Shown here one piece after another: positions 25,378-33,247 of a stretch of 64,000 nt of DNA (the first letter of the stretch is position 1; each line of letters starts with the position of its first letter). The notes beneath the pieces are model-generated. The model saw only the letters and a list, made by a program, of their open reading frames with translations, ran no database searches and had not been told where the DNA came from. A program made the position numbers and the translations under genes. This DNA comes from Lutibacter sp. (GTDB lineage Bacteria > Bacteroidota > Bacteroidia > Flavobacteriales > Flavobacteriaceae), in assembly GCF_016342705.1 (NCBI RefSeq), contig NZ_JAEINV010000007.1, positions 124,001 to 188,000 of the forward strand, read 5' to 3'.

Positions 25378-25719
25378 TTAACTTACTTGTTCTCCATTTT
25401 TTATGGATGGATTTGAGGGATGTAACAATACAATTTCCTGGTTATTATTTTTTATGCCTAAAACTAAACATTCGCTAAAAAAATTGGCAATTTGTTTTTT
25501 AGGAAAGTTAACAATAGCAGTTATTTGTTTATGAAGTAATTGATTTTTAGTGTACAAATCTGTTATTTGTGCGCTGGATTTTTTAATACCCAAAGTACCA
25601 AAATCTATAGTTAATTGGTACGCTGGTTTTCTGGCATTTGGAAAATCATTTACTTCAATAATAGTTCCTACGCGTATGTCTAACTTTGCAAAATCCTCAA
25701 AAGTAATTTCTGTTTTCAT
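25378..25719 (-). CDS. CsaA-like tRNA-binding domain protein
   Basis: The 113-residue protein is a single tRNA-binding OB-fold, with FAKLDIRVGTIIEVNDFPNA near the N-terminus and FGTLGIKKSSAQITDLY, the hallmark of the CsaA group. CsaA has been described as a dimeric chaperone-like or tRNA-binding protein. It starts 6 bp after the OmpA gene stop and is the last gene of the DUF962-OmpA-CsaA run. Confidence 0.88.
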   Translation of the reverse strand: MKTEITFEDFAKLDIRVGTIIEVNDFPNARKPAYQLTIDFGTLGIKKSSAQITDLYTKNQLLHKQITAIVNFPKKQIANFFSECLVLGIKNNNQEIVLLHPSNPSIKNGEQVS

Positions 25720-25725
25720 TTTTAT

Positions 25726-28700
25726 TTATTCAATAATAACAAATTCGGTTCTTCTATTTAATTGATGTTCAGCTTCTGTACATTTTACACCATTAGCACA
25801 ATTATTAATAAGTTGAGTTTCGCCATAACCTTTTCCTGTAACTCTAGATGCATCAATACCTTTTGAAATAATATAACTCATAACTGAAGCTGCTCTTCCT
25901 TCGGATAGTTTTAAGTTATAATTATCTGGAGCTCTACTATCTGTATGTGATTTTACTTCAATTTTTACTTCGGGATTATTTATTAGGTAACTGATTACTT
26001 TGTTTAATTCAATAGCTGCATCAGGTCTAATATTATCTTTATCTAAATCAAAATAAATATTATTTGTGTTAATTAATTTTTGGCCACCTAAAGTTACATA
26101 TTCAATAGATGGAGTTAAATAAATATCCTTTACTAATTGACTGTTATAAATATTAGTGGTTTGAAATTCAAATTGTTGAGTATCAAATTTTTCTAATTCA
26201 ATTTTTAAATTATAATTAGTGTCACACGATAATTCTAAATTAAAAGTAGCGTCATTTAATAAGGAGTGCGTTTTTAAAATTTCATTATTTTTATAGACAA
26301 TTAATTTTGATCCGAATAAAGGTTCTTTGGTTTCTTTATTAAAAATTGAAATTAATAAATTTTGATTACAAGGTTTAGGGGTTAAAAACAGCTGTTTAGT
26401 TGAACTAGCATCATAGGTTAAATCGGTAGTAAATTCAATTTCATCAGACTCAAAATTTTCTGCTTCACTAATAATTTTATAATTGGTATTGCAATCTGCA
26501 TTAAAAATTAAGGTATTAGTATTTACTATATATTTCTCATCCAATAAATTGTTATTACTATAAATGGATATTTTTGTGTTTTTTAACTGTTGATTTGTTT
26601 GTTTATTAAAAACAATAACTTCAAATTTCTGTTTGCATTTTTTTGGAGATAACGTAATTGTTTTTTCAATTATAACGTCATTATCTGCGTTAGTTTCAAA
26701 CACCATTTCACCGTTTTCAAAATTATTTGCCGATGCTATAATTTTATAAGAAGTATTGCAATTTAAACTAAAACTGAATGTATTTAAGTTAGTGACCTCT
26801 TTTTGTTCTATTAAAATATTATTTGAAAATAACGAAACTGTTGCATTTTTAATTTCAAAATTGGTTGATTCACTAACTAAGTTTCCATTTAAATTTTGAT
26901 TGCATATTATTGGAGTTAAAAACAGTTGTTTAGTTGCTGTGGAATTAAAAGTTGCATCTGTATTAAATTCAATTTCATCAGACTCAAAATTTTCCGCTTC
27001 ACCAATAATTTTATAATTAGTATTGCATGCTGCATTAAAAATGAAGGCGTTATTAGTTATAATATATTTCTCATCTAATAAATTGTTATTGCTATAAATG
27101 GAGATTTTTGTGTTTTTTAATTGTTCATTCGTTTCTTTATTGAAAGTAATAATTTCAATTTTTTGAGTACAGTTTTTTGGAGTTAAGATAATAGTTTTTT
27201 CAATTGTAACTTTATTATCCTTAGTAGTTTCAAAAGCTATTTCACCGTTTTCAAAATTATTTGCCGATACTATAATTTTATAAGAAGTGTTGCAATTTAA
27301 ACTAAAACTGAATGTATTTACATTAGTGACCTCTTTTTGTTCTATTAAAATATTATTGGAAAATAACGAAACGGTTGCATTTTTAATTTCAAAATTAGAT
27401 GATTCACTAATTAAGTTTCCATTTAAACTTTGGTTGCATTCAATTGGATTTAAAAATAATTTTTGAGTTGTACTATTGCCAAAAGTAGCATCTGTTTTAA
27501 ATTCAATTTGTGTAGCTTCAAAATTTTCCGCTTCACCAATAATTTTATAATTAGTATTGCATGCCACATTAAAAATTAATGGGTTATTAGTTACAATGTA
27601 TTTCTCATCTAATAAATTGTTATTGCTATAAATGGAAATTTTTGTGTTTTTTAATTGTTGATTCGTTTCTTTATTGAAAGCAATAATTTTAATTTTTTGA
27701 GGACATAATTTTGGTTTTAATGAAATTGATTTTTCAATTGTAACTTTATTATCCTTAGTAGTTTGAAATGCTATTTCACCATTTTCAAAATTATTTGCCG
27801 ATGCAATAATTTTATAAGAAGTATTGCAATTTAAATTGAAACTATATGTATTTAAGTCAGTTACATTTTTTTGTTCTATTAAAACACCATTTGAAAATAA
27901 TGAAACGCTTGCATTTTTAAGTTCAAAATTAGATGATTCACTAATTAAGTTTCCATTTATAAATTGGTTGCATACCATTGGATTTAAAAATAATTTTTTA
28001 GTTGTACTAGAGCCAAAAGAGTCGTCTGTATTAAATTCAATTTCTGTAGTTTCAAAGTTTTCTGACGCTCCAATTATTTTATAATTAGTATTACAATCAG
28101 CATTAAAAATTAAGGTATTATTATTTACAATGTATTTCTCATCTAATAAATTGTTATTGCTATAAATGGAAATTTTTGAATTTTTTAATTGTTGATTTGT
28201 TTCTTTATTGAAAGCAATTATTTCAATATTTTGATTGCATAATTTTGGTTTTAATGAAATTGATATGTTATTTACAGTGTTTAATGCTTCGCCAGTTTTA
28301 ACTAAAATTTCAGTACTATTATAGTTGTTGGCTTCTGCTAGTAGAATGTATGACGTATTACAGTTTACATTAAAACTAAAATTATCTGTAATTTGCTTTT
28401 CAATTAATTTTCCATCTACTATTAAAGAAACATTAGAAATAATTGGTAAATTTTGAATGCTTTTAACAGTACCTGCAATTTTTTGAAAGCATGGTGTTTT
28501 CGTAAGTGTAATTTCTTTTTTTAATTGTTTATTATAAGTTCCATCTGTTGTGAATTCAATGTCAGATTGAATATAATTTTTTGCATTGGCTACAATTTTA
28601 TAGGAAGTATTGCAATTGGCTTTAAAAGAAATTGGATGATTATCATTGATGGGTTGTGTAATTACAGAACCCTTATTGTCAACTATTAAAACATTACCAC

Positions 28701-29946
28701 TTTCAATAATTTCCTTTTTACCTTCAAAATTTATCTGCACTTCAACAACCTGATTGCAATCTAAAGGCGTTAATTTAAAAGTTTCTACTATTTTTTTATT
28801 TAAAATATCATTTGTAATAATAAAGGTTTCAAAGGGGAGATAATTTTCTTTTTCAGCCACTAATTTATATGTAGTGTTGCATTTTAGTGGTGTTTTATAG
28901 GTTGAATTATTGCTGTCTGATAAGACGTCAATATTTTCTATATCAGTTGTTAAAGAAATAGTTAAATTTGAAATTTCTTTTTTGGTTTTTTCATCAATAA
29001 AATTAAAAACAATTTCTTGTGCACATATGATTTCTTTGGGTACAAAAGCATAAATATCAACATCTCCAATCCCATCTTTTCTGTTAGAAGTAAAATAACC
29101 TGTATTTGTTGTATTATTATATATAAAACCAAAATCGTCAAATTTACTATTAATTGGTTCAGGTAAATTTTGTGCTTTTTGGTACTCTCCATTTTTAAAT
29201 TCACTCTTAAAAATATCTAAACCACCCATTCCTAAATTTCCAATAGTTGAAAAATATAAGTTAGAATTAGCGTCTATAGTTGGATATTGCTCACTGTAAG
29301 CAGAATTAATATTAGGGCCTAAATTTACTGGAGTTCCGTATGTTCCATCATTTAAAATATCTACATAATAAATATCGCTTTCACCATAACCACCTGGCAT
29401 ATCAGAAACAAAAAATAGTTTTTTTCCATTATTACTTAAAATTGGACTTCTTACAGAATATTTATCACTGTTAAAAGGAAGAAATACAATATTGCTTGTT
29501 TCAAAGTTTTCGTTAATTGTGGCTTTTACAATTCTTAATGTTTTCCATTTTTCTACATCTTCTTTACTTTCAATACTATAAAAATTATTCCAAGTAAAAT
29601 ACACCGTTTTTAAATCTTGACTAAAGGTAATATCCGCTTCAAAAAATTTATTTTTTATTTCATTAGAAAATTTACCAGTTTCTAAAATATCTCCATTTTC
29701 GGTAATTGTACCTATATAAAATTCTAAAAATGATTGACTATTATTTTTTCTTCTATCTTTCATGAAATTTTTATCATCATCCACTTTTTTTGATGATGCA
29801 AATACTATTGTATTATTATTTAAAAAGGTAGCACCCAATTCCGCAAATTTTGAATTGACAGAAGTGTTAATTACTTCATAATCTTTTTGTTGAGAGAAAC
29901 TTAAATTGTAAATAATAAGAAATAATAATAATGTAATTTTATTCAT
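25726..29946 (-). CDS. Giant PD40-repeat / OmpA family cell-envelope protein, 1406 aa
   Basis: A signal peptide (MNKITLLLFLIIYNLSFSQ) leads into a PD40/TolB-like propeller region (about 30-300; GGYGESDIYYVDI, GMGGLDIFKSEF, GIGDVDIYAF). Eleven Cys-starting units follow at residues 308-1281, ten of 89 residues and one of 84, each with a first Cys and a second Cys in CNTSYKI near position 49. The OmpA peptidoglycan-binding domain is at about 1282-1406 (NIYFDLDKDNIRP, KIEVKSHTDSRAP, LSEGRAASVMSYI). This PD40-repeat-OmpA order resembles PorE-like and other flavobacterial envelope proteins. The repeats are beta-rich, perhaps Ig-like. The protein is likely periplasmic or outer-membrane bound and links to peptidoglycan. 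Its specific function is not known. Confidence 0.88.
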   Translation of the reverse strand: MNKITLLLFLIIYNLSFSQQKDYEVINTSVNSKFAELGATFLNNNTIVFASSKKVDDDKNFMKDRRKNNSQSFLEFYIGTITENGDILETGKFSNEIKNKFFEADITFSQDLKTVYFTWNNFYSIESKEDVEKWKTLRIVKATINENFETSNIVFLPFNSDKYSVRSPILSNNGKKLFFVSDMPGGYGESDIYYVDILNDGTYGTPVNLGPNINSAYSEQYPTIDANSNLYFSTIGNLGMGGLDIFKSEFKNGEYQKAQNLPEPINSKFDDFGFIYNNTTNTGYFTSNRKDGIGDVDIYAFVPKEIICAQEIVFNFIDEKTKKEISNLTISLTTDIENIDVLSDSNNSTYKTPLKCNTTYKLVAEKENYLPFETFIITNDILNKKIVETFKLTPLDCNQVVEVQINFEGKKEIIESGNVLIVDNKGSVITQPINDNHPISFKANCNTSYKIVANAKNYIQSDIEFTTDGTYNKQLKKEITLTKTPCFQKIAGTVKSIQNLPIISNVSLIVDGKLIEKQITDNFSFNVNCNTSYILLAEANNYNSTEILVKTGEALNTVNNISISLKPKLCNQNIEIIAFNKETNQQLKNSKISIYSNNNLLDEKYIVNNNTLIFNADCNTNYKIIGASENFETTEIEFNTDDSFGSSTTKKLFLNPMVCNQFINGNLISESSNFELKNASVSLFSNGVLIEQKNVTDLNTYSFNLNCNTSYKIIASANNFENGEIAFQTTKDNKVTIEKSISLKPKLCPQKIKIIAFNKETNQQLKNTKISIYSNNNLLDEKYIVTNNPLIFNVACNTNYKIIGEAENFEATQIEFKTDATFGNSTTQKLFLNPIECNQSLNGNLISESSNFEIKNATVSLFSNNILIEQKEVTNVNTFSFSLNCNTSYKIIVSANNFENGEIAFETTKDNKVTIEKTIILTPKNCTQKIEIITFNKETNEQLKNTKISIYSNNNLLDEKYIITNNAFIFNAACNTNYKIIGEAENFESDEIEFNTDATFNSTATKQLFLTPIICNQNLNGNLVSESTNFEIKNATVSLFSNNILIEQKEVTNLNTFSFSLNCNTSYKIIASANNFENGEMVFETNADNDVIIEKTITLSPKKCKQKFEVIVFNKQTNQQLKNTKISIYSNNNLLDEKYIVNTNTLIFNADCNTNYKIISEAENFESDEIEFTTDLTYDASSTKQLFLTPKPCNQNLLISIFNKETKEPLFGSKLIVYKNNEILKTHSLLNDATFNLELSCDTNYNLKIELEKFDTQQFEFQTTNIYNSQLVKDIYLTPSIEYVTLGGQKLINTNNIYFDLDKDNIRPDAAIELNKVISYLINNPEVKIEVKSHTDSRAPDNYNLKLSEGRAASVMSYIISKGIDASRVTGKGYGETQLINNCANGVKCTEAEHQLNRRTEFVIIE
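26371..28239 (-). repeat. Alternating A/B coding repeats, 7 x 267 bp (534-bp higher-order period)
   Basis: Seven units run A-B-A-B-A-B-A in the OmpA gene. Each is exactly 267 bp, so homologous A-type points fall at 26558, 27092, 27626 and 28160, precisely 534 bp apart. The A unit carries LLDEKYI and TNYKIIGEAENFE; the B unit carries LIEQKEVTN and TSYKIIASANNFENGE. The A-type DNA copies are nearly identical over long stretches, which points to recent duplication or gene conversion of the A-B pair. Confidence 0.9.
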
Positions 29947-29954
29947 AAAATAAT

Positions 29955-30422
29955 TTAGTGGTTGCTATTTGTTAATTTTTCAAAAACCCAAGCTGGACCA
30001 ATGAGTAAAAATTGTAAATCTTTAAAAAATGATGGTTTTTTTCCTTCTATTTTATGGCCATAAAATTGACCAATCCATGCAACTACAAAAATAATCAGAG
30101 AAGTGTAAAATAAAGGAAAAACATCAGATAAATAACGGTTTCCAATTAAACATATTGCAGAAAAAACAAACATTTTTAAAAATGTAGAAAATGATAAACG
30201 AAGATAAAATAATAACAAAATACTAAGAATAACAGCAGCCCAATTTTCTAAAATGGGATTATTTATGTTTAAAACAGTTTCAATTGTTGTTGATGGGATA
30301 CTCATTAACATACCTACAATGCTAAAAAAGATAGCAGGAACACATATATAATGGATTAATTGATTTGTTTTATTTTGATGACTTACGGCATATTCATCAA
30401 ACCAAGTTTGCAAATTTTTCAT
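29955..30422 (-). CDS. DUF962/Mpo1-like integral membrane protein
   Basis: The 155-residue protein begins WFDEYAVSHQNKTNQLIHYICVP, the signature of DUF962 (yeast YGL010w/Mpo1 family), and has about four hydrophobic segments (around 28-47, 62-77, 82-97 and 100-118). Mpo1 in yeast is a 2-hydroxy fatty acid dioxygenase of the alpha-oxidation pathway, but for bacterial homologues the role is unproven. Metal-binding His candidates are H15, H24 and H123. It starts the run that continues into the OmpA gene after 8 bp and is divergent from the barrel gene. Confidence 0.85.
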   Translation of the reverse strand: MKNLQTWFDEYAVSHQNKTNQLIHYICVPAIFFSIVGMLMSIPSTTIETVLNINNPILENWAAVILSILLLFYLRLSFSTFLKMFVFSAICLIGNRYLSDVFPLFYTSLIIFVVAWIGQFYGHKIEGKKPSFFKDLQFLLIGPAWVFEKLTNSNH

Positions 30423-30471: not shown

Positions 30472-30479
30472 CAACTTTG
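30472..30479 (+). promoter_or_regulatory. Variant -7 box of the outer-membrane barrel gene
   Basis: CAACTTTG differs from TAnnTTTG at the first base. It overlaps the in-frame GTG at 30479, making that codon an unlikely start and favouring ATG 30530. Confidence 0.4.
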
Positions 30480-30529
30480 TGAAAATGGCTGACTATTTTC
30501 TCAAAGATATTAAAAAAGTAGAAACTACT

Positions 30530-33247
30530 ATGATTTTTAAATTTTCAAACTTCAATTATACAATTATTAAAACGCTCCTTTTATTAATTACAATTTTAAG
30601 TATTGGTATAAATTCTCAAGCTCAAAGTATTAAGGGTTTGGTTGTTGATGAGGATAATAATCCACTAGAATTTGCGTCTATTGCATTATTACAACAAAAA
30701 GATTCATTATTAATTAAGTATACAACAACTGGTGCAGATGGAAGGTTTGAGCTGTCTGATTTTAAAGAAAACACGTATCTATTTCAGGTGTTTTTAATGA
30801 CCTACCAAGCCAACCAAAGAGTTTTGAAAGTTACAAATACTCCTATAAATTTAGGCACCATTAAATTAGATAAGGAAGTAAATAACTTGAATGAAGTAGT
30901 TGTAAATGCTATTGTGCCAATTAAAATTAAACAAGATACGGTTGCATTTAATGCCAAAGCTTTTAAAGTTAGGCAGGATGATAATGTGGAAGATTTAATT
31001 AAGAAACTGCTTGGTGTTCAAATAGGTACAGATGGATCGGTTACTGCTCAAGGACAAGAAATTACTAAAATTTTGGTAGATGGAAAGGAATTTTTTAATA
31101 ACGACCCAACTATTGCATTAAAAAATTTAACTGCAGATGCTATTAAAAGTGTTCAAATTATAGATGAAGAAAGTGATGATGCCAGAACTACAGGAATTAA
31201 AGATGGTGAAAAAACAAAAATTATAAATCTGGTTTTAGAAGACGGTAAAAAAACAGGTTATTTTGGTAAAATGGGAGTAGGAATAGGTACTAATGACAGA
31301 TATACAACTAACTTTGATATTAATAGATTTACAAAAAATTCTCAATTAGCATTATTTGGAAATTTAAATAACATTAATAATACAGGAGCGGCAGTTTTTA
31401 GTAGAGATGGGAGCAGAGGCGATAATAGTGGTTTTTTAACAACAGGAACTGCTGGAGCTAACTATAATTATGAGTTTAAGAAGGATTTAAATTTTAATTT
31501 AGATTATCATTTTGGACATTCAGACAGAGAACAGGAAGAGAATTCTAATAGAACCGAGTTTACAAGTGAAACTTCGTTTACTACTGAAAATGAGAATACA
31601 AGCGAAAATATTTCCGACAACCATAATGTAAATTTTAGTGTACGCGACAGATCTAAAAAGGATGCTTATTTAGAATTTAGAGGGAATTTTAAAAACGATA
31701 CTCGGAGTTCATCAAACACTAGTTCAACAGTGTTTTTTGATGAAACTAAAATTGAAGACACTAATAGTAATAGATCTACGAGTAGTGATGATATAAGGAA
31801 TAGCGGAAAATTAAATTTTTCATATCGAAAAAAAATCAATGAAAAAGGACGTAATATTAGACTTAGAAGTGGTATTTCTTTTTCAGATAATGATGATGTA
31901 AATTATCAAAATTCAACCACAAAATATAATGTTTCAGATATAACTTCTTATTCTGAATCTGATGAAACAACAGAAAGAAAAGAGCGCAATAAAGGATTAA
32001 ATTATGATGTTTCTTTTAGATATATGGAGCCAATTATTGAACATCATTTAATAAGTTTTTCAACTAGTTATGAAAATAATACAAGTGATGAAAGTTTAGA
32101 TCAAACAAAAACTATAAATACAATTGCTCAAAATCCATTTATCTATCAATTAGATTATGCAAATCAAATATTTGAAAATCAGTTAGGTTATGTGTATAGT
32201 AAAGATAAAATTCAGGTGTATTTGTCTGGGAGTTTTGAAACTATGAAACAAAAGTTAGACATTGATTCTAATTCAAATATCAATAAAAAATATGATCATT
32301 TTTTACCAAGTACAACCGTAAATTATGAGTATAAAAAAGGGAAAAATCTAAGATTTAGGTATAATAAATCAACTTCTTTACCAAGTTCAAGTCAGATTTC
32401 TCCAATTTTAAACGATTTTAATCCATTATCAATTTCAGTAGGAAATCCAAACTTAACACCAGAAGAATCAGATAATTTAAATCTACGTTTGTACTCTCAT
32501 AACTTTAAAAGTACTGCTAGTTTTTTTAGTTATTTAAATTATAGTAAAACCACCAATGCTATTGTAACTAATAGAAGTGTAGATGAAAATTATGTTTCAA
32601 GCAGATCTTATGAAAATTATGGAGATAAATCTAATTTTAGAGGAATGGTTCATTTTGGGAACAAAATTAAAGGGCTGCCTATTAGATATACGTTTAGAGT
32701 AAGTTCAAGTATAAACGATTATACTACAATTATTGATGGTGCATATAATAAAACCAACACAAATAGTAATAGTTTTGGGTTGAGTTTAAGTAATGATGTT
32801 AAAAATAATATTGACATTACCATTGGTGCTAATTATGATTTTGATAAAACAACCTATTCTTTGCAAGACAGAAATAGAGATTATTTTAAACAAAACTATT
32901 ATTCAAAATTTGATTGGGATATTACAAACAGTATAAATTTTAATACACAATTTGATTATTCTTTATATACCGACAATAATTTTGATTCACAAACAGTTCC
33001 AATTTGGAATGTAGCTGTAGAATATGCTTTTTTGAAAGGGAAACGAGGGAATTTAAAGTTTCAAGTATTGGATATTTTAGATAAAAATATTGAAATTGAT
33101 AGGGTGAGTTCTGATAATTATTTTGAAGAAACTTTTAAGAAAAGTCTTGGTACTTATGCAATGCTAAGTTTTACATATAGCATGAAACCACCAACAGGTA
33201 AAGAAAGCAAAAGAGATTCAGGAGAAAGTAGAAGACATCGTCATTAA
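30530..33247 (+). CDS. Outer-membrane beta-barrel protein, TonB-receptor-like
   Basis: From ATG 30530 the protein has 905 residues with a signal peptide (LLLLITILSIGINSQAQ). A carboxypeptidase-regulatory-like beta-sandwich follows (SIKGLVVDEDNNPLEFASIAL), then a plug-like segment with LIKKLLGVQIGTDGSV and ITKILVDGKEFFNNDPT, and a long barrel with many alternating aromatic strands. The TonB box is not evident. This is the outer membrane beta-barrel family common in Bacteroidota; the ligand is unknown. The frame is open from GTG 30479 and ATG 30485, but a -7-like box overlaps that GTG. The C-terminus is unusual for a barrel, ending in a basic Arg/His tail (SGESRRHRH) rather than an aromatic residue. 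Confidence 0.85.
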   Translation: MIFKFSNFNYTIIKTLLLLITILSIGINSQAQSIKGLVVDEDNNPLEFASIALLQQKDSLLIKYTTTGADGRFELSDFKENTYLFQVFLMTYQANQRVLKVTNTPINLGTIKLDKEVNNLNEVVVNAIVPIKIKQDTVAFNAKAFKVRQDDNVEDLIKKLLGVQIGTDGSVTAQGQEITKILVDGKEFFNNDPTIALKNLTADAIKSVQIIDEESDDARTTGIKDGEKTKIINLVLEDGKKTGYFGKMGVGIGTNDRYTTNFDINRFTKNSQLALFGNLNNINNTGAAVFSRDGSRGDNSGFLTTGTAGANYNYEFKKDLNFNLDYHFGHSDREQEENSNRTEFTSETSFTTENENTSENISDNHNVNFSVRDRSKKDAYLEFRGNFKNDTRSSSNTSSTVFFDETKIEDTNSNRSTSSDDIRNSGKLNFSYRKKINEKGRNIRLRSGISFSDNDDVNYQNSTTKYNVSDITSYSESDETTERKERNKGLNYDVSFRYMEPIIEHHLISFSTSYENNTSDESLDQTKTINTIAQNPFIYQLDYANQIFENQLGYVYSKDKIQVYLSGSFETMKQKLDIDSNSNINKKYDHFLPSTTVNYEYKKGKNLRFRYNKSTSLPSSSQISPILNDFNPLSISVGNPNLTPEESDNLNLRLYSHNFKSTASFFSYLNYSKTTNAIVTNRSVDENYVSSRSYENYGDKSNFRGMVHFGNKIKGLPIRYTFRVSSSINDYTTIIDGAYNKTNTNSNSFGLSLSNDVKNNIDITIGANYDFDKTTYSLQDRNRDYFKQNYYSKFDWDITNSINFNTQFDYSLYTDNNFDSQTVPIWNVAVEYAFLKGKRGNLKFQVLDILDKNIEIDRVSSDNYFEETFKKSLGTYAMLSFTYSMKPPTGKESKRDSGESRRHRH

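What the first reader, a model, noticed from the sequence alone, without database searches (positions are those of the whole stretch)
26371..28239. Exact 534-bp higher-order A/B repeat in a PD40-OmpA protein
Seven consecutive units of exactly 267 bp alternate A-B-A-B-A-B-A, so A-type points fall at 26558, 27092, 27626 and 28160. Equal spacing with near-identical DNA implies recent duplication or gene conversion of an A-B pair. Eleven units in all (ten of 89 residues, one of 84) carry two cysteines each, at position 1 and near 49, which could form one disulfide per unit. Unit number may vary between strains and change the reach of the protein.
Basis: partly seen in the sequence, partly recalled or inferred. 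Interest (0 to 1): 0.7.

Follow-up and report, generated by a model that had tools for sequence, protein, structure and literature searches.

The report
Variable-length disulfide-clamped periplasmic tether protein
A marine bacterium carries a cell-envelope protein built like a bead chain of eleven similar folded domains between a propeller and a cell-wall-binding end; sister species have the same gene at the same place with two to twelve beads, so its length changes readily in evolution while its ends stay fixed.

Summary
Confirmed with corrections. Window 25726-29946 (-), in a Lutibacter genome, encodes a 1406-aa protein: PD40 propeller, 11 tandem units (ten of 89 residues, one of 84), OmpA-type peptidoglycan-binding domain. 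Units 4-10 (26371-28239) run A-B-A-B-A-B-A with exact 534-bp spacing, but copies are not near-identical: A-A 77-86%, B-B 84-90% DNA identity, dN/dS 0.15-0.55. One unit is predicted (pLDDT 93) as a seven-stranded transthyretin/CnaB-like sandwich. Both cysteines occur in 185 of 187 Lutibacter units and in 33 of 34 one-unit homologs, pointing to one disulfide inside each unit. Unit number differs between species at the same locus: 17 intact single-gene loci have 2,2,2,3,3,6,6,6,6,7,8,8,8,10,11,12,12. The nearest relative, L. maritimus, has five fewer. The two-unit pattern recurs in three other species; others expanded single units, to 97% identity. Variation within a species could not be tested. 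Best reading: a PorE-related, non-lipoprotein, peptidoglycan-anchored tether whose stalk grows and shrinks by unequal recombination, working like Periscope proteins but predicted periplasmic. New variant of a known kind.

The parts
25726..29946 (-). PD40 - 11 units - OmpA protein, 1406 aa, with a Sec-type signal peptide by eye (first Cys is residue 308, so no lipobox)
29026..29946 (-). signal peptide and PD40 beta-propeller region (residues 1-307)
   Evidence: PD40 29.7 bits, cut-off 20.9
28759..29025 (-). unit 1 (89 aa), pairs with L. maritimus unit 1 (66% aa)
28492..28758 (-). unit 2 (89 aa), pairs with L. maritimus unit 2 (62%)
28240..28491 (-). unit 3 (84 aa), pairs with L. maritimus unit 3 (57%)
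27973..28239 (-). unit 4, type A
27706..27972 (-). unit 5, type B
27439..27705 (-). unit 6, type A
27172..27438 (-). unit 7, type B
26905..27171 (-). unit 8, type A
26638..26904 (-). unit 9, type B
26371..26637 (-). unit 10, type A; groups with L. maritimus unit 5
26104..26370 (-). unit 11 (89 aa), pairs with L. maritimus unit 6, the last (72%)
25729..26103 (-). C-terminal part with OmpA-like peptidoglycan-binding domain; D1336, N1344, R1351 match the PorE contact residues; Cys 1383 and 1389
29955..30422 (-). Mpo1-like gene, 8 nt upstream, probably same operon
25378..25719 (-). CsaA-type tRNA_bind gene, 6 nt downstream, probably same operon

Best explanation
It is a peptidoglycan-anchored, probably periplasmic tether. 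A Sec signal exports it. The C-terminal OmpA domain grips diaminopimelate in peptidoglycan. The N-terminal PD40 propeller holds a partner, most likely at the outer membrane, as PorE is thought to hold PorP. Between them lies a stalk of transthyretin/CnaB-like domains, each pinned by one disulfide between its first residue (in the short inter-domain linker) and the loop after its fourth strand. Stalk length changes in whole units by unequal recombination between similar units. Where two diverged unit types alternate, only two-unit offsets share enough identity, so the array changes in A-B steps. Terminal units escape this and stay recognisable between species. SHOWN here by sequence: architecture, unit counts, the five-unit difference from L. 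maritimus, mostly lineage-specific central units, cysteine conservation, retained peptidoglycan-contact residues. INFERRED: signal type, disulfide pairing, periplasmic place, propeller partner, recombination as the cause, and that length matters to the cell.
For: Architecture. PorE peptidoglycan-contact residues D576/N584/R591 (PMC7192894, passages; [quoted passage not shown] Counts at the locus range 2-12 in 17 intact single-gene loci out of 38 genomes searched. 445 gap positions against L. maritimus. Unit tree: in L041, L044, L047, L049, L051 and L052 the first, second, last-but-one and last units each group across species (support 0.94-0.98), while most central units group within a species. 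Two-unit pattern: window 82-90%, L041 97%, L044 91-93%, L049 72-89%, L047 89% for one pair; one-unit expansions: L040 93-97%, L052 83-96%, and L054, a propeller-less relative, 98-99%. Both cysteines in 185 of 187 distinct Lutibacter units and 27 of 27 from other genera (188 of 190 and 27 of 27 with a looser duplicate rule); 33 of 34 one-unit proteins carry the pair, and in 11 of 34 the only other Cys beyond residue 30 are the OmpA two, so the pair has no other likely partner. Fold: one A unit pLDDT 92.7; Foldseek TM (query/target) 0.81/0.75 to CnaB2 8bdw_H and 0.71/0.77 to carboxypeptidase D TTL domain 5aq0_A, at weak E-values of 2.9e-3 and 6.0e-3. dN/dS 0.15-0.55.
Against: No PorP/SprF gene lies beside it: 6 hits in the genome, two next to other PD40-OmpA paralogs, the only one on this contig about 147 kb away and with stops, so the partner is a guess. 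Not a lipoprotein and no TPR match, unlike PorE. A stalk of about 40 nm if fully extended (domain length recalled, not computed) would exceed the outer membrane-peptidoglycan gap (recalled), so a simple straight strut is unlikely. The four-unit model has pTM 0.42, so rod shape is not established. The gene is interrupted in 5 of 38 genomes, so it may be dispensable there. Some central units do group across species (L047 with L049, units 3 and 5), so turnover is not complete.
Confidence: 0.6

Rival explanations
1. Neutral repeat turnover: the units only need to fold. Recombination adds and removes them, and any number works equally well.
For: Counts scatter widely with no clear trend on a poorly resolved tree; most central units are species-specific; interrupted copies in five genomes; L065 and L067 have an intact one-unit copy beside a longer one.
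Against: Purifying selection between copies, dN/dS 0.15-0.55; cysteines kept in 185 of 187 units. Both are also expected if only the fold matters, so they do not exclude this rival.
Confidence: 0.33
2. The units are binding modules and the array works by avidity (many weak contacts to a glycan or envelope protein) rather than by reach.
For: Among the Foldseek matches are domains of carbohydrate-acting and pilus proteins; proteins with 10, 8 or 3 units and OmpA but no propeller exist (L054, L056; L119).
Against: No ligand known; the only residues identical in all 17 aligned units are C1, Q3, C49, Y53, T71, L85, which look structural.
Confidence: 0.2
3. It is a T9SS/gliding component, a PorE-like anchor for a secreted adhesin complex.
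For: NCBIfam PorE model 257 bits; two paralogs with a propeller and OmpA lie beside PorP/SprF genes in this genome, and one-unit relatives in other species lie beside genes that look like PorP/SprF by eye.
Against: PorE cut-off is 600 and is not reached; no TPR match, no lipobox, no PorP/SprF neighbour; conserved neighbours are Mpo1-like and CsaA genes.
Confidence: 0.25
4. The array length is an assembly artefact.
For: In 10 of 38 genomes contigs end inside this gene, typical of repeats that assemble badly.
Against: Window copies differ by 10-23%, enough to assemble uniquely; single-contig genomes G025, G026 and G010 show 8, 12 and 3 units.
Confidence: 0.04

Closest known systems
PorE (PG1058), Porphyromonas gingivalis T9SS
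   Same: beta-propeller, carboxypeptidase-regulatory-like domain (CRD) and OmpA_C domain in the same order; the three peptidoglycan-contact residues are conserved
   Different: PorE has a TPR domain, a lipoprotein signal and one CRD; here no TPR match, no lipobox, eleven CRD-like units. Heath et al. [quoted passage not shown]
CHU_0125 family OmpA-like protein, Cytophaga hutchinsonii
   Same: best NCBIfam hit, 330 bits; PD40 plus OmpA_C; its deletion impaired outer membrane integrity (PMC5891637, passages)
   Different: has TPR and is 656 aa; cut-off of 620 bits not reached
Periscope proteins (Sgo_0707, SasG, Rib and others)
   Same: stalk of individually folding tandem domains with variable number between a functional tip and an anchor (PMC8201768, PMC9704523, passages)
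   Different: those are cell-surface proteins with highly identical repeats; this one is predicted periplasmic, compared between species, and its own repeats are 77-90% identical. The word start 'periplasm' occurs 0 times in either paper's main text.
CnaB pilin domains / carboxypeptidase D transthyretin-like domain
   Same: fold, by Foldseek TM 0.71-0.81
   Different: CnaB domains are often stabilised by isopeptide bonds (recalled); here a disulfide is inferred

Membership tests
PorE (T9SS) | OmpA_C domain with peptidoglycan-contact residues D576/N584/R591 | tested here: met
   D1336, N1344, R1351 at identical spacing; not specific to PorE, as the paper finds them in other OmpA proteins
PorE (T9SS) | beta-propeller (PD40) before a CRD | tested here: met
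   PD40 over its cut-off on residues 1-307, just under it on the whole protein; unit fold
PorE (T9SS) | N-terminal TPR domain | tested here: not met
   no TPR family among matches up to E 10
PorE (T9SS) | lipoprotein signal (acylated Cys) | tested here: not met
   first Cys is residue 308
PorE (T9SS) | NCBIfam PorE score of at least 600 | tested here: not met
   257.2 bits
PorE (T9SS) | binds PorP-like barrel | not testable with these tools
   no PorP/SprF gene adjacent
CHU_0125 family | NCBIfam score of at least 620 | tested here: not met
   330.2 bits
Periscope proteins | tandem repeat of individually folding domains | tested here: met
   predicted only: single unit pLDDT 92.7
Periscope proteins | highly identical repeats | tested here: not met
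   77-90% DNA in the window; met in relatives such as L040 93-97%, and L054 98-99%
Periscope proteins | repeat number differs between strains | not testable with these tools
   one genome per species held; differs between species, 2-12
Periscope proteins | rod-like array | tested here: inconclusive
   four-unit model pLDDT 86.4, pTM 0.42; coordinates not available
Periscope proteins | cell-surface exposed | not testable with these tools
   architecture suggests periplasm
Transthyretin/CnaB-like (CarboxypepD_reg) fold | seven-stranded prealbumin-like sandwich | tested here: met
   seven strands; TM 0.71-0.81 to 5aq0_A and 8bdw_H, only 2 of 1117 matches with E <= 0.001; Pfam CarbopepD_reg_2 only 15.9 bits on unit 9, cut-off 32.2

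The most novel reading that the evidence does not exclude
A periplasmic 'periscope': a peptidoglycan-anchored tether whose length is evolutionarily tunable in whole disulfide-clamped domains (2 to 12), setting how far a propeller-bound envelope complex can sit or roam from its cell-wall anchor. It changes in two-unit steps wherever diverged unit types alternate.
Probability: 0.3. Interest if true: 0.72.

Novelty: new variant of a known kind. Interest (0 to 1): 0.47.

Why it matters
Domain-number variation in bacterial stalk proteins is described for surface proteins (Periscope proteins). Finding it in a protein predicted to lie inside the envelope, with a cell-wall anchor at one end, raises a different question: what, if anything, selects envelope tether length? 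The genus offers a ready series of 2, 3, 6, 7, 8, 10, 11 and 12 units with fixed ends, and the alternating arrays suggest how diverged units set the step size of repeat gain and loss.

Tried and rejected
Near-identity of copies: rejected by the identity matrix. Chance repeat: rejected. Assembly artefact: judged unlikely for the window (see rivals). Membership in PorE or CHU_0125: rejected by curated cut-offs, no lipobox and no TPR match. Disulfide between neighbouring units: disfavoured because 33 of 34 one-unit proteins keep the same two cysteines. Alignment A1 was discarded because lag-shifted tandem rows mis-registered; from A4 one out-of-register L. maritimus row was dropped to make A5. 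The genome-contig scan confirmed one relative from 11 pattern matches. Literature: searches listed no paper whose title or abstract start describes multi-unit PD40-OmpA proteins or this gene in Lutibacter; listings were capped (12 of 1,696; 15 of 272); one returned one paper, 70 and 71 none. Papers were seen as search listings and passages only. Rows dropped before counts: one search left out L038 (duplicate of L039), the one-unit paralogs L059-L063 and L068, and units under 75 aa; searches left out hits under 75 residues (14) and duplicates (56). Recounting with a stricter duplicate rule changed 188 of 190 to 185 of 187.

OMP neighbour lead: among the 17 intact loci plus the G009 double locus it looked strong (9 of 12 with 6 or more units against 0 of 6 with 3 or fewer, two-sided p = 0.009). 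Adding six fragmented or interrupted loci with about 6 or more units in sum (G006 yes; G005, G011, G018, G027, G036 no) weakens it to 10 of 18 against 0 of 6 (p = 0.024); other fragmented loci were left out because their number is unknown. The tree backbone is unresolved, so this is not used as evidence.

Full report
WHAT IS THERE. The window lies in a Lutibacter genome (G007, whose contig has the same length as that of L. maritimus DSM 24450, is in its genus). Gene 25726-29946 (-) encodes 1406 aa: signal peptide (by eye), PD40 propeller region (29.7 bits on residues 1-307, cut-off 20.9; 19.2 on the whole protein), eleven units from residue 308 to 1281, OmpA domain 1298-1387 (60.2 bits). Ten units have 89 residues; unit 3 has 84. 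All eleven have Cys at position 1 and at 49 (44 in unit 3). Units 4-10 occupy exactly 26371-28239 in the order A-B-A-B-A-B-A.

HOW ALIKE THE COPIES ARE. DNA identity is 76.8-86.1% among A units, 83.5-89.9% among B units and 56.8-61.5% between A and B. Autocorrelation at lag 534 is 86.2%, at 267 54.5%. Random 267-bp pairs elsewhere reach at most 43.4% (197,589 pairs). So the spacing is exact, the sequences are not. Synonymous distances are 0.23-0.29 (B) and 0.27-1.02 (A) with dN/dS 0.15-0.55: old enough to have diverged, and constrained.

COMPARISON WITH L. MARITIMUS. The ortholog (L038 = L039, 962 aa) has six units. Aligned to the window protein, 706 of 961 paired positions are identical (73%), and the L. 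maritimus row has 445 gap positions, five times 89, in two stretches around a six-residue island. Its units 1, 2, 3 and 6 match window units 1, 2, 3 and 11 best (66, 62, 57, 72% aa); unit 4 matches the B units (54-56%) and unit 5 the A units (66-71%). In the unit tree unit 5 groups with the A units (support 0.99); unit 4 lies in one clade (0.97) with the B units and, weakly placed (0.26), the unit-2 pair. The window lineage therefore carries five extra central units, or L. maritimus lost them; 7 of 9 distances between window copies of one type are below the species distance of 0.77-0.92, the two others involving unit 10, which favours gain.

UNIT NUMBER ACROSS THE GENUS. 38 genomes (own plus 37) were searched. 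Intact single genes at the locus: 17, with 2,2,2,3,3,6,6,6,6,7,8,8,8,10,11,12,12 units. One genome (G009) has two adjacent genes of two units each. In ten genomes contigs end inside the gene (G005, G006, G014, G015, G020, G022, G027, G031, G034, G036); G020 and G036 also have an intact one-unit copy beside the cut one. In five the reading frame is interrupted (G011, G018, G023, G029, G032). Five (G013, G017, G021, G024, G035) were not examined for this locus. The downstream CsaA gene is adjacent in 16 of the 17 intact loci and the upstream Mpo1-like gene in 14 of 17 (frames under 100 aa were not listed). Three single-contig genomes, G010, G025 and G026, show 3, 8 and 12 units; G025 and G026 are 89% identical in propeller DNA.

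RECURRENCE OF THE TWO-UNIT PATTERN. Elevated identity at lag two but not lag one also occurs in L041 (97, 97%), L044 (91-93%), L049 (72-89%) and, for one pair, L047 (89%). Other species expanded single units: L040 (93-97%), L052 (83-96%), L051, L048, and the propeller-less protein L054 (98-99%). In six species (L041, L044, L047, L049, L051, L052) the first, second, last-but-one and last units each form a cross-species group (support 0.94-0.98), while most central ones group within a species; exceptions are units 3 and 5 of L047 and L049. In the remaining species the pattern is less clear. This is the usual signature of unequal recombination in the middle of an array; it is inference, no event was observed.

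OUTSIDE THE GENUS. A profile of the unit matched 103 of 199 genomes (198 genera, two of the genomes from this genus) at E of 1e-8 or better. In the matches listed (the list was cut) most lie in frames of about 530-750 aa with one match. Of four places then read in full, three genomes had one unit per gene, and G133 had the same gene neighbourhood with a two-unit propeller gene followed by a three-unit propeller-less gene. So the locus is older than the genus, and long arrays appear to be mainly a Lutibacter feature in this sample.

DISULFIDE. 185 of 187 distinct Lutibacter units and 27 of 27 from other genera have both cysteines. The two exceptions are a unit cut by the start of an interrupted frame (L050) and the unit of the paralog L002/L063, which lacks both. 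Of 34 one-unit proteins 33 have the pair; in 11 of 34 the only other cysteines beyond residue 30 are the two in the OmpA domain. An intra-unit bond is the simplest pairing. The model comes without coordinates here, so the distance was not measured.

FOLD. Unit 4 (type A) with 17 aligned units (window and L. maritimus): pLDDT 92.7, pTM 0.80, seven strands. Foldseek against the PDB gave weak E-values (2 of 1117 matches at 0.001 or better; the top one is a local match to SleC 9h68_C): hydrazine dehydrogenase complex 6hif_Y (TM 0.75/0.77), carboxypeptidase D TTL domain 5aq0_A (0.71/0.77), CnaB2 8bdw_H (0.81/0.75), E 7.6e-4 to 6.0e-3. Units 4-7 together: pLDDT 86.4, pTM 0.42, so domains are confident and their arrangement is not.

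WHAT IT WORKS LIKE. The propeller-CRD-OmpA order is that of PorE, which binds PorP and peptidoglycan (PMC9143113, PMC7192894, passages). The three peptidoglycan-contact residues are kept, as in OmpA family proteins generally. But it has no TPR match and no lipobox and misses the curated PorE and CHU_0125 scores, and no PorP/SprF gene is near it, so it is a relative, not a member. The variable stalk works like Periscope proteins, but the window repeats are less identical than that class and the predicted place differs.

Noticed in passing
30479-33247 (+): Divergent OMP_b-brl_3/TonB-receptor-like gene lies beside 9 of 12 intact long-array loci (6 or more units) and 0 of 6 short ones (3 or fewer); with six fragmented or interrupted loci 10 of 18 against 0 of 6. 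A possible partner; relatedness of species not controlled.
   Followed up: partly
L046, L050, L055, L101, L102: The gene is interrupted at different places in five genomes with a shared downstream neighbourhood, suggesting decay in one sub-clade or assembly error in repeats.
   Followed up: partly
L054 7118-10273, L056 5833-8487, L119 4989-6269: Propeller-less relatives: about 30-45 N-terminal residues, then 10, 8 or 3 units, then OmpA; in L054 units 5-7 are 98-99% identical in DNA.
   Followed up: partly
L065, L066, L067: Tandem duplication of the whole gene: one unit then at least three (third cut by contig end); two and two; one unit then five and part of a sixth.
   Followed up: no
25378-30422 (-): Apparent three-gene operon Mpo1-like / PD40-OmpA / CsaA with gaps of 8 and 6 nt; why these neighbours stay with this gene is unexplained.
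   Followed up: no
L062 3502-5100 and L068 4072-5658 (both genome G025): One genome carries two copies, nearly identical by eye, of a one-unit PD40-OmpA gene (532 and 528 aa) with a PorP/SprF-like gene beside it, at distant sites.
   Followed up: no
L038 7711-7734 (first eight codons of unit 4): L. maritimus unit 4 starts like unit 2 and continues like a B unit, as if a recombinant of two units (by eye).
   Followed up: no
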